This document shows positions 13,362-52,148 of a stretch of DNA of 64,000 bases, one piece after another. Location: contig QOZQ01000002.1 in NCBI GenBank assembly GCA_003576695.1, positions 186,001 through 250,000 on the forward strand. Direction: 5' to 3'. Position numbers and translations under genes: made by a program. The notes beneath the pieces are model-generated. The model did no database searches and had not been told where the DNA came from. It saw only the letters and a program-made list of their open reading frames with translations. This DNA comes from Taklimakanibacter lacteus. Lineage in GTDB: Bacteria; Pseudomonadota; Alphaproteobacteria; Rhizobiales; Aestuariivirgaceae. How positions within the stretch are numbered: the first letter of the stretch is position 1; each line of letters begins with the position of its first letter.

Positions 13362-13365
13362 GGCT

Positions 13366-14820: not shown

Positions 14821-14851
14821 GCGTGGTGCCTTTCCGCACACACCCAAACAC

Positions 14852-14953: not shown

Positions 14954-14998
14954 AAGAGCAAGTGGAGGGGAGATTACACATGCCTTCGGCTCCAAATC

Positions 14999-15661: not shown

Positions 15662-15676
15662 TGTTGTCTCCTGATG

Positions 15677-37424: not shown

Positions 37425-38558
37425 TTAGCCTCTTAAGGCGAGTCCGCTGCCGGGATCGAAGAAATGCACCCGCTCCATGTCGACGCCGATCTCCAGCGCG
37501 GCACCGCGTTCGGGAAGATGGCGCGGATCGATGCGCGCGGTGATCCGGTTTGACGCGGTGCCCCTCAGCTCGAAGAAGACATAGGCGTCTGCCCCGGTCA
37601 TTTCGGTGATCAGCACTTCGCTTCGGAGGCCGCCGCTGGTGGGATTGGGATAGAGGAAAGCTTCCGGTCTGACCCCCAGGATGAGATCGCGATCGATCCA
37701 TTGGTCGAGGAAGGGCCGCGCCGCAGCTTGCTGGGGGGTAAGCGGCAGGGTCATGTCGGTTCCGGCGATGGTGCAGCGCAGTGTCTTGCCCTTGCGCACA
37801 GGCCTTACCGTGATGAAATTCATCGCCGGCGAGCCGATGAAGCCGGCGACGAAGAGATTGACCGGCTTCTCATAGAGCTCGCGCGGTGCGGCGCATTGCT
37901 GAAGATTGCTCTGGCTCTCGTCGCTGACCGGCCGCAGCACCGCGACGCGGTCGCCCATGGTCATCGCCTCGACCTGGTCATGCGTGACATAGAGCGTGGT
38001 GACGCCGAGCCTGGCATTGAGCAGCTTCAGCTCGGCGCGCATCTGCACGCGCAATTTGGCGTCGAGATTGGACAGGGGCTCGTCCATCAGGAAGCATTGC
38101 GGATCGCGCACGATGGCGCGCCCCATGGCCACACGCTGGCGCTGGCCGCCCGACAAGGTGCCGGGCTTCTTGTGGATATAGGGCATGAGGTCGAGGGTTC
38201 GCGCCGCCTGCTCGACCTTCTGCCTGATGATGTCCTTCGGTATTTTCCGTTGGCCAAGACCGAAGGCCATGTTCTCATACACATCCATATGCGGATAGAG
38301 CGCGTAATTCTGGAACACCATGGCGATGTCGCGATCACCGGGGCCGAGATCGGTGACATCCCGCCCGCCGATCGCAATGCGTCCCTCGGTCAGGGTCTCG
38401 AGCCCGGCGGCGCTGCGCAGAAGCGTGGACTTGCCGCAGCCCGACGGGCCGACCAGCACCAGGAACTCGCCATCCTTCACATCGAGATCGACGCGCGACA
38501 GCGCCAGTGTCCCGTCGCCGAAGCGCTTGCCGACCGACTGGAAGCTCAAAGTCGCCAT
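37425..38558 (-). CDS. Ugp/Mal-type ABC transporter ATP-binding protein
   Basis: A 377-residue CUT1 ATPase. Walker A GPSGCGKS (37-44), MVFQNYALYPHM, signature LSGGQRQRVAMGRA and Walker B FLMDEPLSNLD are intact, with a TOBE-type C-terminal domain. The start shares one base with the Gfo/Idh/MocA stop. A slightly unusual insertion, VSDESQSNLQQCA, follows the D-loop region. It is last in the run binding protein, two permeases, oxidoreductase, ATPase. Confidence 0.92.
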   Translation of the reverse strand: MATLSFQSVGKRFGDGTLALSRVDLDVKDGEFLVLVGPSGCGKSTLLRSAAGLETLTEGRIAIGGRDVTDLGPGDRDIAMVFQNYALYPHMDVYENMAFGLGQRKIPKDIIRQKVEQAARTLDLMPYIHKKPGTLSGGQRQRVAMGRAIVRDPQCFLMDEPLSNLDAKLRVQMRAELKLLNARLGVTTLYVTHDQVEAMTMGDRVAVLRPVSDESQSNLQQCAAPRELYEKPVNLFVAGFIGSPAMNFITVRPVRKGKTLRCTIAGTDMTLPLTPQQAAARPFLDQWIDRDLILGVRPEAFLYPNPTSGGLRSEVLITEMTGADAYVFFELRGTASNRITARIDPRHLPERGAALEIGVDMERVHFFDPGSGLALRG

Positions 38559-39607
38559 CAGCGCGCCCGCTCGAGCTTGACGGCACCGCCGGTCCGCGTC
38601 GCTTCCTCGATTGCGGTCAGGACACGGGTGACGGCGAGCCCGTCCGCGGCATCGGCGAGCACGGGCAGATCATGCGTCACCGCATCGACGAAGCGCGCGA
38701 TCGCTTCCATGACGAAGCCGCCGATACGCCCGCCCGCCGCCGGCGTCACGCCCAGCATGTCGCCGCCCCGCAAGCCTGCACCGGTATATTTCTTGAAGGT
38801 GCCGTTCTGCGCGGTGTCGATCGCGAGCGATCCTTTCTCGCCGACGATCTCGGCCCTGAAGTCGAAGACCAGCGGCAGGTCGCGCGGCAGCACCCAGCTG
38901 TTCTCGAGCGAGGCAATGACGCCATTGTCGAATTCGAGCAGCGCCAGATGCACATCCGCCGTGTCGACGCCTTGGCTCGCAAGAAAGCCATGCCGCTTCA
39001 TCGCCTGCACCCGCACCACTTCGGCATTGAGCGCGAAGCGCAAGGCATCGACTGCATGGCTGCCGAGGAACCACAGAGCGGAAGATTTGGCCGCCCAGCT
39101 CAGGAGCTCGAAGGGGACGAAGAGCGTGTTGGAAAGCCTCGCCGAGGCATGGAGCGGTGCGCCGATCTCGCCCGCTGTGATCGCTTCCTTGACCGCATGG
39201 ACGGCCGGATTGACCCGGTTGTGGAAGTCGACCATCACCTTGGCTTTGCTCTTGGCGGCAAGCTCGGCGATCTTCTCGGCTTCGGCCAGCGTCGTGGCGA
39301 GCGGCTTTTCGCTGAGCACATGCTTGCCGGCCTTGATCGCCGCCAGCACGATGTCGCCATGGGCGAAATCGGGCGTCGCCACCGTCACCGCCTCGACTTG
39401 CGGGTCGGCGATGAGCTCGCGATAATCCGTATAGGCCTTGGTTGCGCCGAACTCCTTTTGCATCGCCTGGGCGCGGTTGGGATCGAGATCGCAGACCGCG
39501 GCGATCTGGGCCCCGGGCAACGCGTTCAGCGTCTTGCAGTGGAAGGAGCCCCAGAGGCCGGCGCCGACGACGCCGAATTTCGTTTTGCCTGTCTTCGAGA
39601 TAGTCAT
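38558..39607 (-). CDS. Gfo/Idh/MocA-family oxidoreductase
   Basis: A 349-residue NAD(P)-dependent dehydrogenase of the inositol/glucose-fructose family. It has the nucleotide-binding GVVGAGLWGSFH, the conserved SEKPLATT (EKP Lys), and GSHAVDALRF with the likely catalytic Asp/His region. It is embedded in the sugar-importer operon, one base before the preceding permease stop, so it likely oxidises the imported sugar or inositol. Confidence 0.9.
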   Translation of the reverse strand: MTISKTGKTKFGVVGAGLWGSFHCKTLNALPGAQIAAVCDLDPNRAQAMQKEFGATKAYTDYRELIADPQVEAVTVATPDFAHGDIVLAAIKAGKHVLSEKPLATTLAEAEKIAELAAKSKAKVMVDFHNRVNPAVHAVKEAITAGEIGAPLHASARLSNTLFVPFELLSWAAKSSALWFLGSHAVDALRFALNAEVVRVQAMKRHGFLASQGVDTADVHLALLEFDNGVIASLENSWVLPRDLPLVFDFRAEIVGEKGSLAIDTAQNGTFKKYTGAGLRGGDMLGVTPAAGGRIGGFVMEAIARFVDAVTHDLPVLADAADGLAVTRVLTAIEEATRTGGAVKLERAR

Positions 39608-39608
39608 G

Positions 39609-40436
39609 TCAGCCCTTTACTGAACCAAAAGTGAGCCCGCGCACGACATAGCGGTCGAGCGCCAGGAAGATGAGCATGGGAGGGATCATGGCGGCGACCG
39701 CGGCCGCGGCGATGAAGCCCCAGGTGACGCCGGCGGTGCCGAAATAGCGCAGCGTGCCGACCGGCAGTGTCGCCGTCTCGCGGTTGCTGAGCACCAGCGG
39801 GAAGGCGGCATTGTTCCACGAGAAGACGAAGGCGAACATCGAGGTGACGATGACGCCGGGCAAAATGAGCGGCAGCACGATGCGCCCGATGATGGTGGCG
39901 GTCGAGGCGCCGTCGACGCGCGCCGCCTCTTCGATCTCGACCGGCACTTCGTCGATGAAGCTGCGCAACAGCCAGATCGAGAAGGGAATGGTCAGCGTCT
40001 GCAGGATGAGGATCATCGAAAAATAGCTGCCCTTGAGCCCGACAGCGCTGGCGAGGATCGAATAGGGGATGAGGAAGGCGACCGGCGGCGCCATCAGGAG
40101 GCCCAGATACCACATCATCAGATGCTTGCGGCCCTTGATGCGGAAGCGCGACAGCGCATAGGCGGCGGGCAGCGAGAAGGGCAGGTTGAGCATTACCGCG
40201 CCCGCCGCCACGATGAGGCTGTTCAAGAGCTGCGGCAGGTTGTTGCCGGGATCGCCAAAGGCGTAATTGACCGAATCCCAGATGGGCGTGAAGGCGGTGA
40301 CCGGCGGCATGGTGAAGAAAGTGTCGGCCGGGCGGATGGCCAGCAGCACGAACCAGAAGATCGGCCCGATGAAGACCACGAGCATCAGCAGCATGAGGGC
40401 ATAGACGGCGGCTTTCGCCGGCACGGACCTCGTCAT
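39609..40436 (-). CDS. CUT1 ABC transporter permease (MalG/UgpE-like)
   Basis: A 275-residue permease with six membrane segments and the EAA loop EIEEAARVDGASTATII, the ATPase contact. ATG 40436 shares one base with the stop of the first permease (TGATG). It is also one base from the downstream oxidoreductase gene. Confidence 0.92.
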   Translation of the reverse strand: MTRSVPAKAAVYALMLLMLVVFIGPIFWFVLLAIRPADTFFTMPPVTAFTPIWDSVNYAFGDPGNNLPQLLNSLIVAAGAVMLNLPFSLPAAYALSRFRIKGRKHLMMWYLGLLMAPPVAFLIPYSILASAVGLKGSYFSMILILQTLTIPFSIWLLRSFIDEVPVEIEEAARVDGASTATIIGRIVLPLILPGVIVTSMFAFVFSWNNAAFPLVLSNRETATLPVGTLRYFGTAGVTWGFIAAAAVAAMIPPMLIFLALDRYVVRGLTFGSVKG

Positions 40437-41338
40437 CAGTCGAACTCCTTGAAGGCGAAGAAGACGAGGAGCGCGATGATGGCGTTGACGACGATGACCA
40501 TGAGCCAGGTCATGGCGCTGGCCAGGCCGATATTGAAGTCGACCAGGCCATATTGATAGAGGCTGTAGCCGAGCGTGCGCGTCGAGGCGCCGGGGCCGCC
40601 CTTGGTCAGCACCAGCACGAGGTCGAAGGTGTTGAACAGCTGCATGAAGCGCAGCATGATCACGATCATCGCCGTCTTCTTGATGAGCGGGATCTTGATC
40701 CTCATCAGCATCGCCCAGGGCGAGGCCTTGTCGATGCGCGCCGCCTCGATGATGTCGGGCGGTATCGAGAGCAGTCCGGCATAGAGGACGATGGCGAAGA
40801 ACGGCGTCCATTGCCAGATATCGGCGAACAGCACGGCCCACAGCGCGGTGGTGCTCGAGCCGAGAATGCCTTGCGGCGGCAGCGGGATGCCGAGAGAGGT
40901 CAGAAGCCACGGGATGAGGCCGCCACCCGGGTCATACATGTAGCGGAACAGGAAGCCGACCACGATGGGCGCGATGGTCGTCGGCATGATGAGGAGGGCC
41001 CGCGTCATATTCATGCCCGGCACCTTGTGGACCAGCAGCAGCGCTATTGCGAGTCCGAGCGTGAATTCGATCGCCGTTCCGACGACGGTGATGAGCAGCG
41101 TGTTGAGAAGCGCGCCGAAGAAGAACCCGCCCGACAGCGCCATCTCGTAATTGCCCCAGCCGATGAAGCCCATGGGCGTCGGGCTCATCTGCAGGTTCCA
41201 GAAATAGAAGCTGTTCTTGAGGGCGAAGAGCAGCGGAAAGGCGATCAGCGCCACGAGCAGGATGATCGACGGGCTGATCAGCAGCCAGGGAATGAAGGCT
41301 GGCAGGCGCCGCGGTCTATGGGCCAAGGTGCTGTTCAT
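40436..41338 (-). CDS. CUT1 ABC transporter permease (MalF/UgpA-like)
   Basis: A 300-residue permease; N-terminal PRRLPAFIPWLLISPSIILL and EAA loop DIIEAARIDKASPWAMLMRI (cited DIIEAARIDKASPW). It pairs with the MalG-like permease. The 166 bases before it, up to the binding-protein stop, are mostly the family B repeat. Confidence 0.92.
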   Translation of the reverse strand: MNSTLAHRPRRLPAFIPWLLISPSIILLVALIAFPLLFALKNSFYFWNLQMSPTPMGFIGWGNYEMALSGGFFFGALLNTLLITVVGTAIEFTLGLAIALLLVHKVPGMNMTRALLIMPTTIAPIVVGFLFRYMYDPGGGLIPWLLTSLGIPLPPQGILGSSTTALWAVLFADIWQWTPFFAIVLYAGLLSIPPDIIEAARIDKASPWAMLMRIKIPLIKKTAMIVIMLRFMQLFNTFDLVLVLTKGGPGASTRTLGYSLYQYGLVDFNIGLASAMTWLMVIVVNAIIALLVFFAFKEFD

Positions 41339-41504: not shown

Positions 41505-42941
41505 CTACGCCAGCGAGGCCATCAAGGCCTTGGTGGCATCGAGCGTGTCGTCATAGGACGCCTGCTGATAGGGGATCAGGAAGTTGCCCTTGAGGATCGT
41601 CTGGAAGAACACCGAGGTTTCCTTCAGGCATTGTTCCGGCGTCAATTCTCCCGACAGCACCTTGTTGAGATTGAGGCCATAGATGCCTTCGAGCGTGGTG
41701 TAGACCGGGCAGGGCGGCCGCACGATCTTGCCATTGCCCTCCTCGAGATCGGCCAGCTGGCCCGGCAGATGCGGGTAGATCTTGATGAGATCGGGGTCCT
41801 TGTAGAGGGACGGTCTCGCGAAGTCGGAGAACTGGTAGCCGAACTTGTTGAAGAGGGCCATTTCCTTCTGCGTCTTGGCGGACGTCGCCCATTTGATGAA
41901 TTGCCAGGCGGCATCGCGATTTTGGGTGTTGCCGGCGATGCCGAGGCTGTGGCCGCCGATGCTGACGACCTGCTTCTTGCCGGGCGCCGTCGGCAGCCGG
42001 GCAATGCCGATCTTGTCGGCGATGACGGAATCCTTGCCCGTCATATAGCCGTCCTTCTTGCACAGATAGGCGTAAGGCGTCCACCAGTAGAAGATGCCGA
42101 TATCGCCCTTGGCGAAGCGCATGCCGGCATCGAACCAGTTATAGCCGACCGCCTCCGGTGGCGAATTCTTGTAGAGCGCCTGGAAGGTCTTGAGCGCTTC
42201 CAGCGTTTCGGGTGAATCGATGGTCGGCTCGAAATCCCATTTCCCGGTCGGGAATTGCTTGAACCAGTGCGTGCCCATGCTGGCGGCAAGCTGCGTGAAC
42301 ATATGCACGACCGGCGCCGGCTGCTGGCCCGAAACGACGGTGCCGGCCATCTTGGCGCCGGAGAAGTCCTTGCCGTTCAGTTTCTCGACGATCGCCAGAT
42401 AGTCGGCCCAGCTCCAGCTTCCGTCGGTCGGGATCTTGACGCCGGCCTGCTCGACATAATCCTTGTAGTAGAGGACGGTCTGGCCATAGGTGGCCACGGG
42501 GAGCGTGCCGACCTGGCCGCGCCAGGTATTCATCGAATAGAGCGCCTGCGGCACATAATCGGCGATGTCGGTGTCCTTGTCCGCCTTGATGAACTCGTTG
42601 AGCGGCAGGATCCATTTGCTTTCGAGATACTGGCCGAGCCACATCTGGTCGACCGAGATGACATCGGCATCCGGCTGGTTGCTGATGAAGGACGAGGTGA
42701 GGCGCGCCTGCAGCGCCTCGAGCGAGATCGCCTCGATCTGCAATTTGATGCCGGTGGCCTGCTGGAACTGATCGGCAAGGCCTTCGATGGCGTAGTAGAA
42801 GGGATCGCCGGCAAGCAGGACGCGCAGCGTCTTGTCCTGCGCCGAAGCCCGCCTGGGCTTCAAGCCGAGGGCGCTGGTGCCGGCAAGGGCGGCGCCACTT
42901 TTCAAGACGGTGCGGCGGGAAATCTTAGGCGTCGTCATCAT
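41505..42941 (-). CDS. CUT1 ABC transporter sugar-binding protein
   Basis: A 478-residue SBP_bac_1 protein. A twin-arginine signal is clear (KISRRTVLKSGAALAG). The mature part has TLRVLLAGDPFY, DVISVDQMWLGQY and GGHSLGIAGNTQNRDAAW, typical of MalE/UgpB relatives. First gene of the importer operon. It diverges from the ROK regulator at 43281, the likely repressor. Confidence 0.9.
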   Translation of the reverse strand: MMTTPKISRRTVLKSGAALAGTSALGLKPRRASAQDKTLRVLLAGDPFYYAIEGLADQFQQATGIKLQIEAISLEALQARLTSSFISNQPDADVISVDQMWLGQYLESKWILPLNEFIKADKDTDIADYVPQALYSMNTWRGQVGTLPVATYGQTVLYYKDYVEQAGVKIPTDGSWSWADYLAIVEKLNGKDFSGAKMAGTVVSGQQPAPVVHMFTQLAASMGTHWFKQFPTGKWDFEPTIDSPETLEALKTFQALYKNSPPEAVGYNWFDAGMRFAKGDIGIFYWWTPYAYLCKKDGYMTGKDSVIADKIGIARLPTAPGKKQVVSIGGHSLGIAGNTQNRDAAWQFIKWATSAKTQKEMALFNKFGYQFSDFARPSLYKDPDLIKIYPHLPGQLADLEEGNGKIVRPPCPVYTTLEGIYGLNLNKVLSGELTPEQCLKETSVFFQTILKGNFLIPYQQASYDDTLDATKALMASLA

Positions 42942-43280
42942 GGTCGTTCCTCCTCCTGTTGTGACGTCAAACGGATGTCTGGGTCATTTCTTTTGATGGG
43001 TCGGCTGGTGAGGACCGGCATCCGCCATTGCCTGGGGCAACAGCAGAATGAGCCCGTCGAAAGAGCTGGAGACCCATCGCCTGGGAAACCGGATCTTTTT
43101 AACTTGCCACCTTCTTATGTTTGTTTGATGCTTGCACATACTTACGGTATCGTCAAGGCGGCGCGCGAGCCGGAGGGGTGCAGCGCCATGGGATTCGCCG
43201 ACAAGGCTTCCCGGTGCTAGGCCTCGCGCAGAGCATGTAGGATTCGCCCGGCCATGCCGGGTCGAAAAGGATCGAGAGCG
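42942..43280. promoter_or_regulatory. Divergent intergenic region, sugar operon / ROK regulator
   Basis: 339 bases with no convincing gene. An AT-richer stretch at about 43095-43150 probably holds the divergent promoters and includes TATGT-N15-ACATA (43116-43140), a possible ROK-protein operator. GGAGGAGGAA close to 42950 is the ribosome site of the binding-protein gene. The rest looks unremarkable. Confidence 0.4.
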
Positions 43281-44546
43281 ATGGCGTCCGACGGAAGATC
43301 GTCGTCCGAAAAAGAAAAAGCCGGTCTGACGGCGATGAGCGAATTGTTCGATGAGGCGCGTCCCCGCCGAAGCCAGGGCCTGATCTCGTCCTCCGCCATC
43401 GGCCTCGCCAATCGCGGCCGCGTGCTGCAGGCGCTGTTCGATCTCGGCCCCACCAGCCGTGCCGAGCTCGCCCGCCATGTCGGCGTGAACCGCGCCACCA
43501 TCACCGGCATCATCCAGCCCCTGATCGATCAGGGCCTGCTCGTCGATGGCGATCCCCTGCCGTCGAAGGGAAGCGGCGGCAAGCCGGCCAAGCCCATGTG
43601 GTTCGCCAGAGATGCGGCGCCGATCTGCGCCGTGCTCCTGATGCATGACAGTGTCCATTGCTGCCTGGTTTCGCTGAGCGGCACGATCACGGCGGAAGTC
43701 AAGGCGGACTTCCCGCCGGAAGCCGGCGAGGTCGAGATCCTGGCGCGCACGATCTTCGCCTCGATCAGCCAGACCCTGGCACTCGCCCACCGCCCGCCGC
43801 TCGGCATCGGCGTGGCGGCCGGCGGCATGATCGATACCGACAGGGGCGCGATCGTCGCCGTGAACCTGGCGCCGCTGCTGGCCCATTTCCCGTTGGGCGA
43901 GGAGCTGACGCGCCGTTTCGGTTTGACCACGCGCGTCGACCATCATCCGCGCGCGCTGCTGGTCGGCGACCGCTGGTTCGGCATCGGCCGCGGCAAGCGC
44001 AACTTCGCCGTCATCTATACGGGTGAGGTGCTGGGCGGCGCCCTGTTCCTCGATGGTCATCTCTATCGCGGGCGCGCCGGCGCCGGCGGCGAGCTTGGCC
44101 ATACTTTCGTGGCCGTTGACGGCTCGATCTGCCGCTGCGGCCGCCGGGGCTGCTGGGAGACCATCGCCACGCTGGGCTGGCTGCGCCGCGAGGCCCGGCT
44201 CGCCGGCCTCGCTGCCGCGGAAATGATGGATTCGCAGCGTCTCGTTGCGCTGGCCGAGAGCGGTGCCGCGGGCGCCGCGGAACTGCTTGACCGCTATGCC
44301 CGCAATGTCGCGATAGGCATTGCTAATCTGCAACAGACCATGGCGCCGAACTTCATCGTCCTGCATGGCGATGTCGTCGGGGGCGGGTCTCGCTTGCTCG
44401 ATGCCATAACTCAGCATGTTCGCGATCTCGTGCCTTGGCGCCCGGGTGGCGATATCGAACTCGTCATGGGAGATCTCGAGGACCGGGCGGCATTGCGCGG
44501 CGCCGCCGGCCTCGTTCTCTCGGAGTTGCTCCATTTCACCTTGTGA
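43281..44546 (+). CDS. ROK-family transcriptional repressor (NagC/XylR type)
   Basis: A 421-residue regulator: winged helix-turn-helix (about 55-95, TSRAELARHVGVNRATITG, cited LARHVGVNRATITG) followed by a ROK sugar-binding domain with GELGH and the zinc motif CRCGRRGCWE. I chose ATG 43281 with AAGGA nine bases upstream; ATG 43254 and ATG 43335 are alternatives. Its place opposite the CUT1 importer makes it the likely repressor of that operon, relieved by the imported sugar. Confidence 0.87.
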   Translation: MASDGRSSSEKEKAGLTAMSELFDEARPRRSQGLISSSAIGLANRGRVLQALFDLGPTSRAELARHVGVNRATITGIIQPLIDQGLLVDGDPLPSKGSGGKPAKPMWFARDAAPICAVLLMHDSVHCCLVSLSGTITAEVKADFPPEAGEVEILARTIFASISQTLALAHRPPLGIGVAAGGMIDTDRGAIVAVNLAPLLAHFPLGEELTRRFGLTTRVDHHPRALLVGDRWFGIGRGKRNFAVIYTGEVLGGALFLDGHLYRGRAGAGGELGHTFVAVDGSICRCGRRGCWETIATLGWLRREARLAGLAAAEMMDSQRLVALAESGAAGAAELLDRYARNVAIGIANLQQTMAPNFIVLHGDVVGGGSRLLDAITQHVRDLVPWRPGGDIELVMGDLEDRAALRGAAGLVLSELLHFTL

Positions 44547-44567: not shown

Positions 44568-45374
44568 TCAGCCCATGTAAACGCCGCCGGTCACATTGAT
44601 CCCCTGCCCGGTCATGAAGCGGGCGGCATCGGAACAGAGAAACACGGCGAGACCTGCCACATCTTCCGGCTTTTCGAGCCGGCCGAGCGGCGTCTGGTTC
44701 ACATAGTCCCTGATCACTTGTTCGGGCGTCAGGCCGCGCAATCTGGCTTCCCACGCCACTTCGCGTTCCTGCATCGAGGTCTTGACGAAACCGGGGCAGA
44801 CCGCATTGACGCGGATGCCTTGCGCCGCGACCTCGCGCGCCAGCGCCTGCGTCCATCCGAGGACCGCGAACTTGCTGGCGGAATAATGCGCCAGCAAGGG
44901 CGCGCCGACCTTGCCGGCGAGAGACGCTGTGTTGACGATCACGCCCTTCTTCTTGGTCCTCTCGAAATAGCGGACCGCCGCCTGGTTGGTCAGGAAGATG
45001 CCTTTGATATTGACGGCGAAGTTGAAATCCCATTCCTCGTCGGTGAGGTCGACGGCGCGGTTCATGGTCGACACGCCGGCATTGGCGATCAGTATTTCAT
45101 AGCCGCCGAGCGCCTGCTCGATCTCGGCGAAGGTTTTCTCGACCGATGCGCGCTGGCTGACATCGATGCCGAAGGCGGCATTCCCTGATCCGAGATCCGC
45201 GGCCGCTTTCCGGGCGGCAGCCTGGTCGAGATCGGCAATGACGATGCGCACCCCATGGGCCGCGAGTGCCGTGGCAATGGCCTTGCCGATGCCCGTGGCG
45301 CCGCCGGTGACGATGGCCGTCTGGCCTTTCAGGTCGGCCCCTAGCGTCGGAACTTTTTGTGAAGCGTCCGCCAT
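44568..45374 (-). CDS. Short-chain dehydrogenase/reductase
   Basis: A 268-residue classical SDR. It has the Rossmann motif TGGATGIG, NAG at IANAGVS, catalytic Ser in NTASLAG and YxxxK in HYSASK. The C-terminus INVTGGVYMG is typical. It stands alone between the ROK regulator (convergent, 21-base gap) and the DeoR-type gene (divergent), whose operators probably control it too. A polyol or sugar alcohol substrate is plausible. Confidence 0.88.
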   Translation of the reverse strand: MADASQKVPTLGADLKGQTAIVTGGATGIGKAIATALAAHGVRIVIADLDQAAARKAAADLGSGNAAFGIDVSQRASVEKTFAEIEQALGGYEILIANAGVSTMNRAVDLTDEEWDFNFAVNIKGIFLTNQAAVRYFERTKKKGVIVNTASLAGKVGAPLLAHYSASKFAVLGWTQALAREVAAQGIRVNAVCPGFVKTSMQEREVAWEARLRGLTPEQVIRDYVNQTPLGRLEKPEDVAGLAVFLCSDAARFMTGQGINVTGGVYMG

Positions 45375-45391
45375 GATTCCCGTTCAGTAAT

Positions 45392-45460
45392 GTTTGAAAC
45401 CACACATATCGTAACAAATATGAAGTGTAAAACACTTTGTTGTGTTCGATTTTGTTTGAA
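45392..45460. promoter_or_regulatory. Candidate DeoR operator cluster
   Basis: Within the 138-base AT-rich gap between the SDR and deoR-type genes there is a perfect palindrome AAGTGT-AAA-ACACTT (45423-45437). It is flanked by two direct copies of GTTTGAA followed by a CCAC-type tail (45392-45398 and 45454-45460). This arrangement of spaced elements suits a DeoR-type repressor that loops or spreads over two promoters. Confidence 0.5.
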
Positions 45461-45512
45461 CCACCCTGGAGCTGTGCTATCCCTTGATCGAAACCCATAA
45501 GGATTCGTTCAT

Positions 45513-46370
45513 ATGGCGACGCCCTCAGATCCGCCTGTTTCCCTGACCGAACCGCGCAGCGAAGTTGTCCGGCGGATGCCGGGAGAGCTGCGCCAGGCCC
45601 ACATCGTCGAGCAATTGCGCAAATCGGGCTTCGTCTCGGTGGCCGAGGTCGCCGCGGCGCTCGCCGTTTCTGAAATGACGATCCGCCGGGACCTCATCGA
45701 TCTCGAGGCCGAGGGCCGCCTGATCCGCACCCATGGCGGCGCCATCGCCCCCGAAGGGACGACGATGCCGGCTTTCGACCGTGAGGAGCCGGCTTTCGAG
45801 CAGCGCCTGCGCCAGAACAATTTCGCCAAGGAATCGATCGCATCGGAAGCGCTGAGTCTCATCAGCCCGCGCCAGACGGTGGCGCTCGACGTCGGCTCGA
45901 GCACATTCGTGCTCGCCGCGCGCCTCGCCAGCTTTCCCTCGATCAAGGTCTTCACCAATTCGCTGCGCATCGCCACCTTGCTGGGCCGCGAAAGGCGTGA
46001 TGTCTATCTGCCGGGTGGCGAGGTGCGCGGCGACGAGATGTCGATGTGCGGGCCTACCGCCGTCGCCCAGTTCGAGCAGCTGTGGTTCGACATCGCGTTC
46101 CTCGGCGCATCCGGCCTCACCAAGGCCGGCTTTTTCGATTATTCGCTCGAAGACAGCGAGCTGAAGCGCGTCTATTTGCGCCGCTCCAGCCGCAAGGTTC
46201 TCCTGTGCAACGCCGCCAAGTTCAATCATCTGTCGCTGGTCCAGGTGGCCGGCCTCGAGACGATCGACATGCTGATCACCGACCAGGCGCCGGTCGGCGA
46301 TCTGGCTGTCGCATTGGCTGAGGCCAATGTCGAGATCCGCATTGCCCGTCCCGCTTCCATTTCTTCGTGA
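45513..46370 (+). CDS. DeoR/GlpR family transcriptional regulator
   Basis: A 285-residue repressor. The helix-turn-helix reads SVAEVAAALAVSEMTIRRDL (cited AVSEMTIRRDL) with the family RTHGGA after it; the C-terminal sensor domain has ALDVGSSTFVLAARL and ASGLTKAGFFDYS. Its N-terminus is some 25 residues longer than usual (MATPSDPPVSLTEPRSEV). AAGGA precedes ATG 45513 by nine bases. It heads a co-directional run of six genes to 52010 and likely autoregulates it. Confidence 0.9.
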   Translation: MATPSDPPVSLTEPRSEVVRRMPGELRQAHIVEQLRKSGFVSVAEVAAALAVSEMTIRRDLIDLEAEGRLIRTHGGAIAPEGTTMPAFDREEPAFEQRLRQNNFAKESIASEALSLISPRQTVALDVGSSTFVLAARLASFPSIKVFTNSLRIATLLGRERRDVYLPGGEVRGDEMSMCGPTAVAQFEQLWFDIAFLGASGLTKAGFFDYSLEDSELKRVYLRRSSRKVLLCNAAKFNHLSLVQVAGLETIDMLITDQAPVGDLAVALAEANVEIRIARPASISS

Positions 46371-46394
46371 TCGATCCTCCAGGAGACTGTCCAG

Positions 46395-47195
46395 ATGCCG
46401 TTTGAGTTCTTTGGGCCCAAGAAGAAGCCCGTCATTGCCATGGCCCATATCGGGGCTCTGCCGGGCGCGCCGCTCTACGACGCGAAAGCGGGCGTGGCCA
46501 GGCTGATCGAAGACGTGCTGAAGGATGTCGAGAAGCTGCAGGCCGGCGGTGTCGATGCCATCATGTTCGGCAATGAGAATGATCGTCCCTATGTCTTCTC
46601 GGCCCCTCTCGAAGGCATTGCGGCGATGACGGCGGTGGTCCAGGCGGTGAAGCCGGCGCTCAAGGTGCCGTTCGGCGTCAATTACCTGTGGGATCCGAAA
46701 GCCAGCGTTGCGATCGCGGCGGCGACCGGCGCCAAATTCGTGCGCGAGATATTCACCGGCGTCTTCGCCTCCGACATGGGTATCTGGGAGCCCGATTGCG
46801 CCGGCGCGGCGCGGCTTCGGACCAATCTCGGCTGTGCCGGCGTGAAGCTGCTCTTCAACATCAATGCCGAATTTGCCCATTCGCTCGACCAGCGTCCGAT
46901 CGAATTGCGCGCCAAGAGCGCCGTCTTCTCCTCGCTCGCCGATGCGATCCTGGTTTCGGGCCCGCTCACCGGTGAGCCCGCGGCGCAGTCCGACCTGCGC
47001 AAGGTCAAGGATGCGGTGAAGTCGGTGCCGGTCTTCGCCAATACCGGCGTCAATCTCGACAATGTCGCCGATGTTCTCTCCGTCGCCGACGGCATCGTCA
47101 TCGGCACGCATTTCAAGGTCGACGGCAATACCTGGAACGCCGTCGATGCCGCCCGCGTCAAGCGGTTCATGGACAAGGTCGGGACCTTGCGCTGA
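46395..47195 (+). CDS. BtpA/SgcQ-family protein
   Basis: A 266-residue TIM-barrel protein of the BtpA/SgcQ family. Recognisable are VIAMAHIGALPGAPLY near the start, GGVDAIMFGNENDRPY, LGCAGVKLLFNINAEF and GIVIGTHFKVDGNTWN. Cyanobacterial BtpA affects photosystem I stability, but E. coli SgcQ lies in a sugar operon and this context is likewise sugar-like. The enzymatic reaction is not known to me. A 24-base gap follows the deoR-type gene and 11 bases precede the kinase gene. Confidence 0.85.
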   Translation: MPFEFFGPKKKPVIAMAHIGALPGAPLYDAKAGVARLIEDVLKDVEKLQAGGVDAIMFGNENDRPYVFSAPLEGIAAMTAVVQAVKPALKVPFGVNYLWDPKASVAIAAATGAKFVREIFTGVFASDMGIWEPDCAGAARLRTNLGCAGVKLLFNINAEFAHSLDQRPIELRAKSAVFSSLADAILVSGPLTGEPAAQSDLRKVKDAVKSVPVFANTGVNLDNVADVLSVADGIVIGTHFKVDGNTWNAVDAARVKRFMDKVGTLR

Positions 47196-47206
47196 CGAGC
47201 CCGCTC

Positions 47207-48718
47207 ATGAGCTATGTCATCGGTTTCGATATCGGCACGACATCGACGATCGGCATTCTGATCGGCCTGCCTGACCGCATCCTTCACATCGCCACGCGCC
47301 CGGTGACGCTGACCGCCAAACATCCGGGCTGGGCCGAGGAGGATCCCGGGCAATGGTGGTCGAATGTCGGCGAGATCGCGCGCGAGCTCTTGGCGGTCGG
47401 CGGCATCAAGGCATCCGACGTGAAGGCGGTGGGCGTCACCGGCATGCTGCCGGCTGTGCTGCTGCTCGATGCCGACGGCAAGCTTCTGCGGCCCAGCATC
47501 CAGCAGAGCGATGCGCGCTGCGCCGCCGAGGTCGAGGACTTGCGTCGCAAGGTGGATGAGACGGAATTCACGCGCAAGACCGGCAACGGCGTCAACCAGC
47601 AGCTCGTCATCGCCAAGCTGCTGTGGATCAGGAAGCATGAGCCGGAAATTTTCGCGAAAATAGCGACCGTCTTCGGCTCCTATGACTATATCAACTGGCG
47701 GCTCACCGGCGAACGCGCGGTCGAGCAGAACTGGGCGCTGGAAGGCGGCTTCGTCAATCTCGAGACCCATGCGATCGATGATGAGCTGGTGAAGCTTTCG
47801 GACCTTCCCCGCAAGGCGCTGCCGCGCAAGACCGTCTCGCATGAGCTCCTGGGCCACATCACCGAAATCGCGGCCGGGGATACGGGTCTCGCCCAGGGGA
47901 CGCCGGTCATTGCCGGGGCCGCCGATCATATAGCCTCGGCACTTGCCGCCGGCATCGCGCGCCAGGGCGAAGTGCTGCTCAAATTCGGCGGCTCTGTCGA
48001 TGTGCTGATCGCCACCGATCGGGTGGCGCCCGATCCCCGCATGTATCTCGACTATCATCTGGTGCCCGGCCTCTATGTGCCCAATGGCTGCATGGCGACC
48101 GGAGGCTCCGGTCTCAACTGGTTTGCTGCGAGCTTCGCCGAGGGCGAGCGCGGCAAGGCGGAAGCGGCCGGCATGAGCGTGCATCAATGGCTCGACAGGC
48201 TGGCGGCCGGCATCCCGGCGGGTGCCGAAGGCGTGCAGATCCTTCCCTATTTCCTGGGCGAGAAGACACCGGTCCATGATGCCGATGTCAGGGGGGCCAT
48301 CCTCGGTTTGAGTCTTGCCCATGGCCCCGCCCATCTGTGGCGCGCTCTGCTTGAAGCCTATGCCTATGGCATCGCCCATCATATCGAGGTGCTCAACGAC
48401 ATGGGCCATGCGACGGAGACCTATGTCGCTTCCGATGGCGGATCGAAGAGCGCGGTATGGATGCAGATCGTCGCCGATGTGCTGCAGAAACCGGTGCAGC
48501 GCCTCGCGGGCCATCCGGGCTCGTGCCTCGGCGCCGCCTGGACGGCGGCGATGGGCCTGGGGCTGGCCCATGACTGGTCGGCCATCTCGCGCTTCGTCAG
48601 CTTCGCCGATCGTCTCGAGCCCAACCCGGCTCACGCAGCCGTCTATGCCAAGGGCTATGCGTCCTTCCGGCGGCTCTATCAGCCGATCGCCGCACTTGAA
48701 ATCAGGGAAACATCATGA
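47207..48718 (+). CDS. FGGY-family carbohydrate kinase (xylulokinase-like)
   Basis: A 503-residue sugar kinase. The N-terminal ATP/phosphate site is GFDIGTTSTIGIL; then HPGWAEEDPGQWW, GVTGMLPAVLLLD, YDYINWRLTGE, AGAADHIASALAAG and the C-terminal SDGGSKSAVWMQI. It differs clearly from the FGGY kinase at 13366, so the two modules treat different substrates. The stop overlaps the HAD gene start by four bases. Confidence 0.9.
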   Translation: MSYVIGFDIGTTSTIGILIGLPDRILHIATRPVTLTAKHPGWAEEDPGQWWSNVGEIARELLAVGGIKASDVKAVGVTGMLPAVLLLDADGKLLRPSIQQSDARCAAEVEDLRRKVDETEFTRKTGNGVNQQLVIAKLLWIRKHEPEIFAKIATVFGSYDYINWRLTGERAVEQNWALEGGFVNLETHAIDDELVKLSDLPRKALPRKTVSHELLGHITEIAAGDTGLAQGTPVIAGAADHIASALAAGIARQGEVLLKFGGSVDVLIATDRVAPDPRMYLDYHLVPGLYVPNGCMATGGSGLNWFAASFAEGERGKAEAAGMSVHQWLDRLAAGIPAGAEGVQILPYFLGEKTPVHDADVRGAILGLSLAHGPAHLWRALLEAYAYGIAHHIEVLNDMGHATETYVASDGGSKSAVWMQIVADVLQKPVQRLAGHPGSCLGAAWTAAMGLGLAHDWSAISRFVSFADRLEPNPAHAAVYAKGYASFRRLYQPIAALEIRETS

Positions 48719-49395
48719 CCATTCGCGCCATTGCCTGGGATGTCGATGGCACGCTGGTCGACAGCGAGCCTCTGCATCATGACGCTCTCTTCGCCGCCTG
48801 CGGCAAATGGGGCGTAGACATCTCCGACATCTCCGATGATGAGTTTCGCGGCGTCCATATGGGCGATGTGTGGCGGGCGCTCGCCCCGCGCATGCCGGCA
48901 TCGGCGCGCGAGGCTGACTGGGTGCAGGCCAATGACGACTACTATGTGAAGCATCGCAATCTCCTGGTGCCGATGCCACGCGCGGTCGAGACGGTCAGGC
49001 AGCTCGCCCAGGCCGGCATTGCCCAGATCTGCGTCTCCAATGCCAGCCGCCTGATTCTCGATGCCAATATCGATGCGCTGGGCCTGCAGGATGTGATCGA
49101 ATTCTCGATCAGTATCGATGACGTCGGCCATGGCAAACCGCATCCCGAACCCTATGCCACGGGCTGCACGCGCTTTGGCCTCAAGCCGCATGAGGTCGCC
49201 GCCATCGAGGACAGTGCCACCGGCAGGCGCTCGGCCCGGGCCGCCGGCCTCCTGGTGATCGCTTACGATCATCTGAACGAAGGGGTGACCGATGCGGATC
49301 ACGCGATCCGCGACCTGGCCTTGCTGCCGGGCTTGATCAGGGCGCACCCAGCTGCAAGCATAGGTGTGGAACTCGAGGGAACAGGCGGAGCCTGA
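48715..49395 (+). CDS. HAD-superfamily phosphatase, subfamily IA
   Basis: A 226-residue hydrolase like phosphoglycolate phosphatase or beta-phosphoglucomutase. The nucleophile motif is WDVDGTLVDSEPL (Asp9, Asp11), motif II is CVSNASR, motif III GKPHPEPY and motif IV IEDSATG. Kinase plus phosphatase in one operon suggests the kinase product is rearranged or cleaved before dephosphorylation, or that the HAD enzyme clears a side product. Confidence 0.87.
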   Translation: MTIRAIAWDVDGTLVDSEPLHHDALFAACGKWGVDISDISDDEFRGVHMGDVWRALAPRMPASAREADWVQANDDYYVKHRNLLVPMPRAVETVRQLAQAGIAQICVSNASRLILDANIDALGLQDVIEFSISIDDVGHGKPHPEPYATGCTRFGLKPHEVAAIEDSATGRRSARAAGLLVIAYDHLNEGVTDADHAIRDLALLPGLIRAHPAASIGVELEGTGGA

Positions 49396-49397
49396 CG

Positions 49398-49721
49398 ATG
49401 GTCTACAAGATCGATGCCGAGCGTGACCGGCAATATATCGAGGAATTCCGGGCGCAGCCCATTGGCGCTCACAGCCCGGGCCTGCAGCGCCTGCTCAACA
49501 TCATGCGCAACGACACGACGGGCTATCAGATCGTGCTGATCTGCCGCAAGCCTTTCGCCGAATGGGTCCTCGGCACCATGCCGCCCAACCGGCTCGATGG
49601 CCCGATCGTCGTCGAGGACGAGCCGGTATTCACCAGCCGCGAGGAGGCGGAGTGGGAAGTCTTCCGCCGCCGCTGGCGCCGCTATACCGGCGAGGACATC
49701 AACTTGCCGTATCGCGATTGA
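49398..49721 (+). CDS. Small subunit-like protein of an N,N-dimethylformamidase-type enzyme
   Basis: A 107-residue protein without signal peptide. It contains YQIVLICRKPFAEWVLG, PIVVEDEPVFTSREEAEW and EVFRRRWRRYTGED. Its size and its position 18 bases before a DMFase-like large subunit fit the light chain of N,N-dimethylformamidase, which is about 130 residues in the characterised enzymes. I base the call chiefly on context, so treat it as probable. It starts two bases after the HAD stop. Confidence 0.6.
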   Translation: MVYKIDAERDRQYIEEFRAQPIGAHSPGLQRLLNIMRNDTTGYQIVLICRKPFAEWVLGTMPPNRLDGPIVVEDEPVFTSREEAEWEVFRRRWRRYTGEDINLPYRD

Positions 49722-49739
49722 CGGGGAAACGGGAACGCC

Positions 49740-52010
49740 ATGCTTAAGATCGTCGGATATCCGGACCGCTATAGTGTAGCACCTGGCGAGAAGATCGCTT
49801 TCAAGATATCGCTCGAAGAGGGCAGCCATTTCGACGCGCGGTTGGTCCGGGTCGTCCATGGCGATTGCAATCCGGAGGGGCCGGGGCTGAAATTCCGGCA
49901 TGTGAAGACATCGGCCGATGGCCGCCACAAGGGCCGGCCGCAACGCGTCGATGCCGGCTCCTATATGGTGGTCGAGGACTTCCCGGCGCTGACATCGGGG
50001 CCTTTCACCTTCTGCGCGATGATCTGGCCGACATTGCCGACGCGTTCGGATCAGACTTTGCTGGCGCAATGGGATGGCGCGGCGCAAAGCGGTTTCCGCA
50101 TCGCGATGACCGATGGCGGAGAGCTTTCGGTCACGCTCGCCGATGGATCCGGCGGGACGGCGGAGCTCAAGAGCGGCAGGCCGATGCTCGAGCGGCAATG
50201 GTATGCGGTCGCCGTCTCGATCGATCCCGCGACCGGCATGGTGACGCTCGACCAGCGCCCGCTCCAGCCCTATGCGCAGATTGCCGACCGCGCCCATGCG
50301 AGCGCCAGGCTTGCGGTCCTGCCGAAGGCCGTGACGGCGCCGCTCTTCATGGCGGGCTGCCCCGAGAAGGACGGCACGGTTGGCCGTCACTTCGACGGCA
50401 AGATCGACGATCCGCTGCTCTTGAGAGGCGCGCATGCGGCCGACCGGCACGATCTCTATCTGCGCCCCGTCATCGATCCCGCACTCCTTCCCGACATCAT
50501 CGCAAGATGGGACTTCTCGCAGGGCATCCGCACCACGCGCACCATCGATATCGGCCCGTCGCAATATCCCGGCCGCATCGTGCATCTGCCGGCGCGCGGC
50601 ATGAAGGGCTGGAACTGGACCGGCGAGGAAATGAGCTGGATGCGAAAGCCTGAGCACTATGGCGCCATCCATTTCCACAGCGACGATGTCTATGACGCCG
50701 GCTGGGAGACATCGGTGGAGCTCACCATACCCGTCGATCTCAAGAGCGGGCCTTACGCGCTGCATGTGAAATGCGGCGAGAATGACCGCGAGGCGACGCG
50801 CGAGGAATATATCGCCTTCTTCGTGCGCCCGCCGCGCCGCCACAAGGATCGCCGGGAGCGGCCCAAGGTGCTGGTGCTCGCCTCGACCGCTTCCTATATC
50901 GCCTATGCCAATCATGGCGAGCACATCACGGCGAGGGGCGCCGAGCGCCAGATGGGGCGCCTCCTGACATTCGGTCATACCGATCTCTATATGTATGACC
51001 ATCCCGAGCTCGGCGGCTCGCTCTATGACCGCCACGCCGATGGGTCCGGCGTATGTTACTCCTCCAGGCTCAGGCCCAATCTCAATTTCTCGCCGCAATA
51101 TCATTCCTGGCTCGGCGGCCATGGCTCGGCGCTCTATCAGTACAATGCCGATACGCATCTCTATGACTGGCTCGATCACAAGGGCGTCGATTACGATCTC
51201 ATCACCGATGAGGACCTTCACACCGACGGCTATGAGCTTCTGCGCGACTATCGCGTGGTGGTGACCGGCACCCATCCCGAATATCATTCGACGCCGATGT
51301 GGGATGCGATGAAGGCGTGGATCGATCGCGGCGGCCGCCTCATGTATATGGGCGGCAATGGCTGGTACTGGCGCATCGCCTATCATGACGAATTGCCGGG
51401 TGTCATCGAGGTCAGGCGTGCCGAGGATGGCATCCGCACCTGGGAGGCGGAGCCGGGCGAATATCATCACTCCTTCACCGGTGAGTATGGCGGCTTGTGG
51501 CGGCGCGTCGGCCGGGCCCCCAATGTCATCTGCGGCGTCGGCTTCATCGCCCAGGGCTTCGACATCTCCTCCTATTATCGACGTGGCCCCGATGCCGACA
51601 ATCCGCGCGCCAGCTTCATCTTCAAGGATGTGCCGGATGAGATCATCGGCGATTTCGGCCTGATCGGCGGCGGCGCGTCGGGCATCGAGCTCGACTGCAT
51701 CACCACCAATCTCGGCTCCCCGCCCAATATGCTGAGACTCGCGTCATCGGAGAACCACAATTCGATGATGATGCTGGTGAATGAGGAATTCACCGTCGTG
51801 CCGCCCAATCTGGGCGGCGATCAGAATGAAAGGGTCAGGGCCGATCTTTCCTTCGGGGAGACGCCCTCGGGCGGCGCCCTCTTCGCGACATCCTCGATCG
51901 CCTGGTGCGGATCGCTCTCCCACAACAACTATGACAACAATGTCTCGAAGATCTGCTGGAACGTGCTGCAACGCTTCGCCGATCCCGAGCCGTTCAAGGG
52001 CGCCTTCTAG
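49740..52010 (+). CDS. N,N-dimethylformamidase large subunit-like amidohydrolase
   Basis: A 756-residue cytoplasmic protein. Residues about 75-235 look like a LamG/concanavalin-type beta domain (FTFCAMIWPTLP, FDGKIDDPLLLRG); about 370-750 resemble the DMFA2 C-terminal catalytic domain. The known Paracoccus enzyme uses an iron held by two Tyr and one Glu. Here THPEYH gives His512 and Glu514 at the expected pair spacing, and Tyr389 (SYIAYAN) and Tyr440 (GVCYSSR) are candidate iron ligands. These assignments are by eye. The enzyme should hydrolyse an amide. Its TAG stop lies inside the inverted repeat of the element at 52007. Confidence 0.78.
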   Translation: MLKIVGYPDRYSVAPGEKIAFKISLEEGSHFDARLVRVVHGDCNPEGPGLKFRHVKTSADGRHKGRPQRVDAGSYMVVEDFPALTSGPFTFCAMIWPTLPTRSDQTLLAQWDGAAQSGFRIAMTDGGELSVTLADGSGGTAELKSGRPMLERQWYAVAVSIDPATGMVTLDQRPLQPYAQIADRAHASARLAVLPKAVTAPLFMAGCPEKDGTVGRHFDGKIDDPLLLRGAHAADRHDLYLRPVIDPALLPDIIARWDFSQGIRTTRTIDIGPSQYPGRIVHLPARGMKGWNWTGEEMSWMRKPEHYGAIHFHSDDVYDAGWETSVELTIPVDLKSGPYALHVKCGENDREATREEYIAFFVRPPRRHKDRRERPKVLVLASTASYIAYANHGEHITARGAERQMGRLLTFGHTDLYMYDHPELGGSLYDRHADGSGVCYSSRLRPNLNFSPQYHSWLGGHGSALYQYNADTHLYDWLDHKGVDYDLITDEDLHTDGYELLRDYRVVVTGTHPEYHSTPMWDAMKAWIDRGGRLMYMGGNGWYWRIAYHDELPGVIEVRRAEDGIRTWEAEPGEYHHSFTGEYGGLWRRVGRAPNVICGVGFIAQGFDISSYYRRGPDADNPRASFIFKDVPDEIIGDFGLIGGGASGIELDCITTNLGSPPNMLRLASSENHNSMMMLVNEEFTVVPPNLGGDQNERVRADLSFGETPSGGALFATSSIAWCGSLSHNNYDNNVSKICWNVLQRFADPEPFKGAF

Positions 52011-52148
52011 AGCATCGGATTATCCGAAAACCGCATGGCGCGTGATCAGGAAAAGTGTGCGCGGTTTTCCGTCCGATCACGCGCCAAATTTTTGGACTGG
52101 ATGGCCGCCTCTCGGGGCGGCCATGGACTTTTCGGTCCGATGCTCTAG
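52007..52148. repeat. 142-bp nested palindromic element (RIME/MITE-like)
   Basis: The ends are perfect 13-base inverted repeats, CTAGAGCATCGGA and TCCGATGCTCTAG. Inside are GGCGCGTGATC (52037) paired with GATCACGCGCC (52075), and ATGGCCGCC (52101) paired with GGCGGCCAT (52116), plus near-complementary CCGAAAACCGC and GCGGTTTTCCG. This matches the style of the short non-coding mosaic repeats of Rhizobiales. It carries no gene. Confidence 0.85.

What the first reader, a model, noticed from the sequence alone, without database searches (positions are those of the whole stretch)
45513..52010. DMFase-like amidohydrolase pair at the end of a sugar-kinase/BtpA/HAD operon
Six genes run in one direction with gaps of 24, 11, -4, 2 and 18 bases: DeoR repressor, BtpA/SgcQ protein, FGGY kinase, HAD phosphatase, a 107-residue protein and a 756-residue DMFase-like large subunit. 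N,N-dimethylformamidase is known from solvent degradation and has a rare two-Tyr/one-Glu iron site. Its linkage here to carbohydrate phosphorylation and a sugar-type repressor suggests a natural role on an amide of a sugar, sugar acid or amino-sugar. The operon structure is seen directly; the pathway is inference.
Basis: partly seen in the sequence, partly recalled or inferred. Interest (0 to 1): 0.75.

Follow-up and report, generated by a model that had tools for sequence, protein, structure and literature searches.

The report
Iron-amidase pair in a sugar island
A two-part iron enzyme related to the one that breaks down the solvent DMF sits here inside a conserved set of sugar-uptake and sugar-phosphorylation genes, which suggests that its natural job is to free a sugar-like compound from an amide before the cell burns it.

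Summary
In detail: six co-directional genes at 45513-52010, gaps 24, 11, -4, 2, 18. The 756-aa protein has the DMFase large-subunit architecture; the 107-aa protein is a remote DmfA1 homologue by profile and fold. The operon is half of an island that adds a sugar importer, a GFO/IDH/MocA dehydrogenase, a ROK regulator and a divergent SDR. Both Labrys genomes read over the whole length have all 13 genes in the same order. The window's DMFA2 clade is distinct; 27 of 31 clade loci carry at least one of six scored sugar genes, against 0 of 18 loci outside it. In 397 genomes of the order the FGGY kinase is in 15 of 15 clade-positive and 30 of 382 other genomes. Most likely the pair hydrolyses an imported sugar or polyol amide whose product the SDR and kinase consume. 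Substrate unknown; nothing was assayed. A new variant of a known enzyme kind.

The parts
37425..38558 (-). ABC importer ATPase, MalK/UgpC type
   Evidence: PF00005 + PF17912; NF008653 436.7 bits, cut-off 432
38558..39607 (-). GFO/IDH/MocA-family sugar dehydrogenase inside the importer operon
   Evidence: PF01408 5.5e-33; 72-74% identical copy in 7 of 7 Kaistia-type DMFA2 loci, 77-78% in 2 of 2 Labrys genomes read that far
39609..40442 (-). sugar-importer permease (start chosen by me; the listed ORF runs on upstream)
   Evidence: ORF; homologues 77-81% in the Kaistia-type loci and Labrys
40436..41338 (-). sugar-importer permease
   Evidence: ORF; homologues 75-83% in the Kaistia-type loci and Labrys
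41505..42941 (-). sugar-type solute-binding protein with Tat-like leader
   Evidence: PF01547 2.9e-32, PF10518 4e-4; closest PDB chain 5iai 1.2e-43
43254..44546 (+). ROK-family sugar regulator (start uncertain)
   Evidence: PF00480 6.1e-42; next to the DMFA pair in the Kaistia-type loci
44568..45374 (-). SDR dehydrogenase, divergent from the DeoR operon; polyol-dehydrogenase-like
   Evidence: PF13561; closest PDB 3ak4 quinuclidinone reductase 2.1e-105, sorbitol/iditol dehydrogenases lower down (best 60 of 176 shown)
45375..45512 (.). divergent promoter region with two direct repeats ending in TGTTTGAA (45382-45398 and 45444-45460), candidate DeoR operators
   Evidence: similar sequence partly kept in L007-L009; operator role is inference
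45513..46370 (+). DeoR/GlpR-type repressor
   Evidence: PF08220, PF00455
46395..47195 (+). BtpA/SgcQ family protein
   Evidence: PF03437 4.5e-75; TIGR00259 over its cut-off
47207..48718 (+). FGGY carbohydrate kinase, XylB-like but under the XylB cut-off
   Evidence: TIGR01312 312 bits, cut-off 380.25; PDB 3ifr 1.3e-172
48715..49395 (+). HAD phosphatase, overlaps FGGY by 4 bases
   Evidence: PF00702 1.2e-29; gap -4
49398..49721 (+). DMFase small-subunit (DmfA1) homologue, 107 aa
   Evidence: profile vs 6lvb_B 3.5e-11; fold; present in 31 of 31 clade loci, upstream of DMFA2 in the same direction
49740..52010 (+). DMFase large-subunit homologue, 756 aa: LamG-type domain and ThuA-like iron domain
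   Evidence: PF20254 5.4e-93, PF13385; 6lvb E 1.5e-156; fold TMq 0.85
50904..50906 (+). Tyr389 codon, predicted iron ligand (DMFase Y399)
   Evidence: invariant 40 of 40
51024..51026 (+). Tyr429 codon, predicted iron ligand (DMFase Y440)
   Evidence: invariant 40 of 40
51273..51281 (+). His512-Pro-Glu514 codons: catalytic His (DMFase H519) and third iron ligand (E521)
   Evidence: His and Glu invariant 40 of 40
52036..52124 (+). two hairpins after the stop codon, the first followed by AAATTTTT: likely end of the transcript
   Evidence: intergenic region -74.6 kcal/mol, z -4.6; reading it as a terminator is inference, the terminator scan did not list it

Best explanation
The island is a catabolic pathway for an amide-masked sugar or polyol. 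A sugar-type ABC importer brings the compound in. The two-subunit DMFA1/DMFA2 enzyme, with an iron held by Tyr389, Tyr429 and Glu514 and His512 as catalytic helper, hydrolyses its amide bond in the cytoplasm. The GFO/IDH/MocA dehydrogenase and the SDR oxidise the polyol or sugar part, before or after hydrolysis. The FGGY kinase phosphorylates the resulting ketose, and BtpA and the HAD protein act on the phosphate. ROK and DeoR sense sugar ligands. Shown: gene order, homology, ligand conservation, synteny and co-occurrence. Inferred: iron occupancy, amide hydrolysis here, the order of steps. That the product is a pentitol or ketopentose is a guess (about one in three).
For: All 13 genes are in the same order in 2 of 2 Labrys genomes read over both halves. 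Seven of 7 Kaistia-type loci keep GFO-permease-permease-SBP divergent from ROK-small-DMFA2. 27 of 31 clade loci (window included; 25 if the second importer type SBP2 is not counted) have at least one of BtpA, FGGY, SBP, SBP2, ROK or SDR, against 0 of 18 outside the clade. FGGY: 15 of 15 clade-positive genomes vs 30 of 382 others; BtpA 14 of 15 vs 35 of 382 (by genus p about 4e-5 and 6e-5). In the six Kaistia-genus genomes without linkage, FGGY (59-60%) and SDR (65-67%) orthologues sit close together elsewhere, with DeoR between them in 2 of 2 loci read. The SDR-DeoR-BtpA-FGGY-HAD core also exists with other importers and no close DMFA pair, so importer and amidase look like an exchangeable front end. 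Ribulose-phosphate epimerase in L021 and triosephosphate-isomerase, AP_endonuc_2 and Sugar-bind genes in L020 sit in the same clusters.
Against: No substrate, transcript or iron is shown. 15 of 31 clade loci lack FGGY and 19 of 31 lack BtpA within the fetched flanks (some flanks end at contig ends). L014, L020, L024 and L025 have none of the six scored genes; L014, L024 and L025 show no sugar importer either. 0 of the 19 same-family genomes listed has the clade's DMFA2, so the gene is patchy near home. Studied relatives act on DMF, acetamiprid or N-acetyl-beta-phenylalanine, none a sugar. Other relatives sit beside amino-acid genes. The active-site part of the model has low confidence (residues 391-426 under pLDDT 50). 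The identity cut-offs and the E cut-off were set after I had seen values.
Confidence: 0.6

Rival explanations
1. The pair is an N-acyl-amino-acid or xenobiotic amidase that shares regulation and neighbourhood with the sugar module but whose amide substrate contains no sugar.
For: Outside the clade some homologues sit near amino-acid genes: PAAT importer and D-amino-acid dehydrogenase in B. vietnamiensis, N-formylglutamate amidohydrolase, aminotransferase and D-amino-acid dehydrogenase in Rhizobium CB3171, class III aminotransferases in L034. Within the clade PF14031 or PALP enzymes, M20 deacylases and copper amine oxidase occur in some loci.
Against: The clade is separate (SH-aLRT 100); in the window, Labrys and the Kaistia-type loci its constant partners are sugar importer, GFO and ROK, and no amino-acid gene was identified in the window island.
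Confidence: 0.22
2. The protein works like ThuA, partner of the dehydrogenase ThuB: the GFO/IDH/MocA enzyme makes a keto sugar and the ThuA-like domain of DMFA2 cleaves or rearranges it, with no amide involved.
For: The DMFase paper assigns domain III a ThuA-like core (PMC7686228); the importer operon has a GFO/IDH/MocA gene kept with DMFA2 in the Kaistia-type loci and Labrys. That ThuB is a GFO-type dehydrogenase and that ThuA/B act through 3-keto sugars is recalled.
Against: The Tyr/Tyr/Glu/His amidase site and the small subunit are kept, and the full-length matches are to amide hydrolases.
Confidence: 0.12
3. It is a genuine dimethylformamidase or small-formamide hydrolase for solvents or methylated amines.
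For: 40% identity to P. aminophilus DmfA2 over 99% of the length.
Against: It groups apart from DMFase, though the DMFase row L042 has a long branch; no LuxR-type gene in the island as there is on pAMI2; a second P. aminophilus locus at 40% identity is not linked to DMF use (PMC4543880, one passage); the constricting Phe693 is Val here, though that column varies widely.
Confidence: 0.04

Closest known systems
N,N-dimethylformamidase DmfA1/DmfA2 (EC 3.5.1.56), Paracoccus
   Same: two genes, small then large; LamG-type plus ThuA-like iron domain; Tyr/Tyr/Glu ligands and catalytic His conserved; same fold
   Different: 40% identity; separate clade; sugar island instead of the LuxR regulator and plasmid context; shorter small subunit (107 against 141 aa); V686 in place of F693
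N-acetyl-(R)-beta-phenylalanine acylase (PDB 8huy, 8i59, 8i5a)
   Same: full-length sequence and fold match (E 1.5e-146; TMq 0.81)
   Different: an amino-acid amide substrate according to its PDB name; I saw no paper on it (one search found none with that phrase)
AceAB acetamiprid amidase, Pigmentiphaga
   Same: two-subunit DMFase homologue (PMC11573777, one passage)
   Different: acts on an insecticide, no activity on DMF according to that passage; sequence not compared here
Stand-alone SDR | DeoR-BtpA-FGGY-HAD modules of Rhizobiales; E. coli sgc operon (its contents recalled)
   Same: same core genes and order in most module loci; BtpA 75-84% in the 20 loci fetched
   Different: no close DMFA pair; another importer; function also unknown to me

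Membership tests
DMFase-type two-subunit iron amidohydrolase | large subunit with DMFA2_C domain and LamG-type domain over full length | tested here: met
   PF20254 5.4e-93 and PF13385; 6lvb E 1.5e-156
DMFase-type two-subunit iron amidohydrolase | DmfA1-type small subunit encoded beside it | tested here: met
   profile E 3.5e-11 to 6lvb_B; Foldseek top hit
DMFase-type two-subunit iron amidohydrolase | two Tyr, one Glu ligand set plus catalytic His | tested here: met
   Y389, Y429, E514, H512 invariant in 40 of 40
DMFase-type two-subunit iron amidohydrolase | ligands clustered round a bound Fe | not testable with these tools
   no coordinates of the model in hand; region partly under pLDDT 50
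N,N-dimethylformamidase proper (EC 3.5.1.56) | hydrolysis of DMF | not testable with these tools
   needs an assay
N,N-dimethylformamidase proper (EC 3.5.1.56) | groups with known DMFase in a tree | tested here: not met
   window in a 31-row clade (SH-aLRT 100) without the DMFase row L042, whose own branch is long
N,N-dimethylformamidase proper (EC 3.5.1.56) | LuxR-type DmfR gene beside the pair | tested here: not met
   regulators in the island are DeoR and ROK; pAMI2 has a LuxR type
Xylulokinase XylB (for the FGGY gene) | NCBIfam equivalog cut-off | tested here: not met
   312 bits against 380.25
Sugar catabolic operon | sugar importer, sugar-type regulators, kinase and dehydrogenases conserved together | tested here: met
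Sugar catabolic operon | one transcript induced by its sugar | not testable with these tools
   only close spacing and no excess of promoter- or terminator-like sites

The most novel reading that the evidence does not exclude
The natural role of one large branch of the 2-Tyr/1-Glu iron amidases is unmasking: they release a sugar or polyol from a natural N-substituted amide, and Alphaproteobacteria swap different importers and unrelated amide hydrolases (the DMFA pair here; gamma-glutamyltransferase-family, amidase-family or asparaginase genes near the core in some plasmid loci) in front of one conserved SDR-DeoR-BtpA-FGGY-HAD sugar core. This would give BtpA/SgcQ proteins a pathway and point to an undescribed class of soil or plant sugar amides.
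Probability: 0.33. Interest if true: 0.75.

Novelty: new variant of a known kind. Interest (0 to 1): 0.55.

Why it matters
DMFases carry a rare iron site, and what most members of the family do in nature is open. A conserved island that ties a separate clade of them to a sugar importer, sugar regulators and a kinase makes that question testable with ordinary biochemistry. It also offers a route to the role of BtpA/SgcQ proteins, for which the listings (titles and abstract starts only) showed me no assigned reaction. And it warns that 'dimethylformamidase' in genome annotation need not mean DMF use.

Tried and rejected
Riboflavin/ribityl-amide idea: suggested by ureide genes near some BtpA modules; dropped because a 2025 paper (PMC12746152, only the start of its abstract in the listing) puts removal of ribose first, and no ring-degrading gene was identified in the island.

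Systematic amidase swap: four plasmid loci that I picked from the BtpA hits carry, near the same core, a gamma-glutamyltransferase-family gene (L094, and the closely related L093), an amidase-family gene on the other strand plus AtzE, AtzF and HpxZ (L095), or an asparaginase some 2.5 kb before the SDR (L096). Against it: in the 12 of 24 BtpA loci that I read ORF by ORF no amide hydrolase lies between SDR and HAD, and most flanking ORFs were not identified. One dihydropyrimidinase lies several genes away in L137; a similar-looking ORF in L139 was not scanned. The frequency of amidases elsewhere was not measured, so the swap stays a lead.

AAC(3)-IV-like gene as pathway member: behind DMFA2 in 3 of 31 clade loci, with hairpins between in the window; not included.

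Internal promoters: 1 promoter-like site against 1.9 expected, and 2 terminator-like sites against 4.1 expected, one of them inside DeoR; nothing supports a break, nothing proves one transcript.

Specific sugar: the nearest solved binding protein is 5iai, which I recall as a ribitol complex; the hit table does not say so. FGGY's nearest, 3ifr, is listed under XylB in PMC3245297 (one passage). Not enough to name the sugar.

Novelty search: of the 12 papers with at least two of four terms none held 'dimethylformamidase'; 13 held papers contain the word, of which I saw passages of PMC11573777, PMC10308929 and PMC4543880 and two thirds of PMC7686228; a look in PMC11801797 found no occurrence. Only this open-licence library was searched.


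Full report
Observation. Pfam names each except the 107-aa protein, which has no Pfam or NCBIfam hit. NCBIfam has no hit for the 756-aa protein either, but Pfam DMFA2_C matches at 5.4e-93.

The pair. The 756-aa protein matches the DMFase large subunit over its whole length (6lvb, E 1.5e-156) and N-acetyl-(R)-beta-phenylalanine acylase (8huy, E 1.5e-146). Its AlphaFold model (pLDDT 79.7, pTM 0.83) has chains of these two proteins as the nine best Foldseek hits (6lvb_A TMq 0.85). The 107-aa protein is a DmfA1 homologue: a profile of 34 sequences finds 6lvb_B at 3.5e-11, with the next hits at 0.02, and its model (pLDDT 92.9) has 6lvb_B as best fold hit. A small-subunit gene is present in 31 of 31 loci of the window's clade, upstream of DMFA2 and in the same direction.

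Active site. From the DMFase paper (PMC7686228; parts 1 and 2 of 3 read) the iron ligands are Y399, Y440 and E521, with H519 essential. In an alignment of 40 sequences (window included) the matching residues Y389, Y429, E514 and H512 are invariant, and N540 is N in 39 of 40. DMFase's constricting F693 is V686 here; in the 23 clade rows of that alignment the column is V 14, P 5, A 3, S 1, and it also varies outside the clade.

The island is larger than reported. On the other strand lie an importer ATPase (37425-38558), a GFO/IDH/MocA dehydrogenase (38558-39607), two permeases and a sugar-type binding protein (41505-42941); then a ROK regulator (43254-44546, +) and an SDR (44568-45374, -) divergent from DeoR. 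Two direct repeats ending in TGTTTGAA lie between SDR and DeoR, 62 bases apart, and similar sequence is partly kept in L007-L009: candidate DeoR operators, by inference. After DMFA2 come two hairpins, the first followed by AAATTTTT (region z -4.6); I read this as the transcript end, although the terminator scan did not list it.

Conservation. In two Labrys genomes the complete island is present in the same order: ATPase, GFO, two permeases, SBP | ROK, SDR | DeoR, BtpA, FGGY, HAD, small, DMFA2. In seven Kaistia-type loci the unit GFO-permease-permease-SBP | ROK-small-DMFA2 stands alone (7 of 7 keep GFO). A second locus in Kaistia hirudinis (L021) joins BtpA, FGGY, HAD and the pair with another importer.

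Clade and control. A quick IQ-TREE tree of 63 DMFA2 proteins (six duplicates and one partial row left out) puts the window in a 31-row clade (SH-aLRT 100, stem 0.53) apart from DMFase (L042, long branch) and from the own-genome paralogues L045 and L046 (midpoint root). The fourth own copy, on C18, was not in the tree. Scoring the fetched flanks of the 31 clade loci gives FGGY 16, DeoR 14, HAD 13, BtpA 12, SDR 12, ROK 12, SBP 12, SBP2 10; 27 of 31 have at least one of BtpA, FGGY, SBP, SBP2, ROK or SDR, and 0 of 18 loci outside the clade do. The 31 include the window itself and L021, the source of the SBP2 query; without SBP2 the count is 25 of 31. The identity cut-offs were set after and favour window-type genes: outside the clade L043 and L046 do have more distant sugar importers, and L043 an FGGY gene at 27%, within about 9 kb. 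Four clade loci (L014, L020, L024, L025) have none of the six; several flanks are cut by contig ends.

Co-occurrence. In 397 genomes of the order, 15 carry a DMFA2 of at least 62% identity, the next best genome having 49% (only the top few candidates per genome are scored by that search). FGGY at E<=1e-175 is in 45, including all 15 (15 of 15 against 30 of 382); that cut-off was set after one search had shown the Kaistia values. BtpA at E<=1e-100 is in 49, including 14 of the 15; the exception G015 has a 57% BtpA beside an SDR and an FGGY gene. These genomes are related; counted by genus, 5 of 5 against 20 of 141 (FGGY) and 22 of 141 (BtpA) gives p about 4e-5 and 6e-5. None of the 19 same-family genomes listed has a DMFA2 match at 1e-150, so the pair is patchy near home. 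In the six Kaistia-genus genomes where the pair is not beside the kinase, FGGY and SDR orthologues stand close together elsewhere, with DeoR between them in both loci read.

Core module. The SDR | DeoR-BtpA-FGGY(-HAD) core also exists without a close DMFA pair. Of 20 BtpA regions fetched from the order, 10 have an importer whose binding protein is 63-69% like that of Salipiger and 22-25% like the window's; four of those 10 are Kaistia loci with BtpA but no SDR or FGGY hit. In four others an amino-acid-type importer seems to stand beside the SDR (family 3 binding protein checked in one, L137). One region (L143) holds a 29% DMFA2-like stretch but no SDR or FGGY hit. Importer and amidase thus look like an exchangeable front end to a constant sugar core. 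On four plasmids that I picked the core is near another amide hydrolase: gamma-glutamyltransferase family (L093, L094), amidase plus AtzE, AtzF and HpxZ (L095), asparaginase plus deacetylase (L096). This sample was chosen, not random.

Function. I conclude that the pair most likely hydrolyses an imported amide of a sugar or polyol and that the SDR and FGGY process the product. Hints for a pentose- or tetrose-level product: XylB-like kinase (under the cut-off; 3ifr listed as XylB in one passage of PMC3245297), ribulose-phosphate epimerase in L021, and AP_endonuc_2, triosephosphate-isomerase and Sugar-bind genes in L020, which resemble rhizobial erythritol genes as I recall them. In other branches of the clade the clusters add M20 deacylases, PF14031 or PALP enzymes, copper amine oxidase or FrlB/FrlD-like genes, so substrates probably differ between branches. 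Relatives known by experiment act on DMF (PMC7686228), acetamiprid (PMC11573777, one passage) and, by the name of the PDB entry, N-acetyl-(R)-beta-phenylalanine; one P. aminophilus paralogue is not linked to DMF use (PMC4543880, one passage). Fold alone therefore does not give the substrate.

Verdict. Real, well conserved, larger than reported, and with one residue corrected. It is a new variant of a known enzyme kind in a setting for which I found no report (open-licence library only).

Noticed in passing
52164-52952 (+): AAC(3)-IV family aminoglycoside acetyltransferase homologue, just over the NCBIfam cut-off (432.9 against 420 bits), behind DMFA2 also in L007 and L009 (3 of 31 clade loci); looks like a chromosomal environmental relative.
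   Followed up: partly
L010:13336-13641 and L019:14020-14343: A second DmfA1-like small protein behind the M20 amidase gene, with no second large subunit found beside it in the fetched flank.
   Followed up: partly
L021 (Kaistia hirudinis) and L019: Clusters join FrlB/FrlD-like deglycase and kinase genes, a PF14031 enzyme and an M20 deacylase with the DMFA pair, L021 also ribulose-phosphate epimerase: possibly catabolism of an Amadori-like or peptide-sugar compound.
   Followed up: partly
L025, L026: Copper amine oxidase gene behind DMFA2 in Rhodopila and Acidisoma, as if the amine released were oxidised next.
   Followed up: no
12060-16447 (-): Another sugar locus in the window: iron alcohol dehydrogenase, FGGY kinase, FucA-type aldolase and a DeoR-like ORF (the last by eye).
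   Followed up: no
own genome, contigs C4, C18, C20: Three further PF20254 genes; those on C4 and C20 have a small-subunit gene beside them.
   Followed up: partly
L093, L094, L096, L130, L149, L150: A questin-oxidase-like gene recurs near the SDR, DeoR, BtpA or FGGY genes.
   Followed up: no
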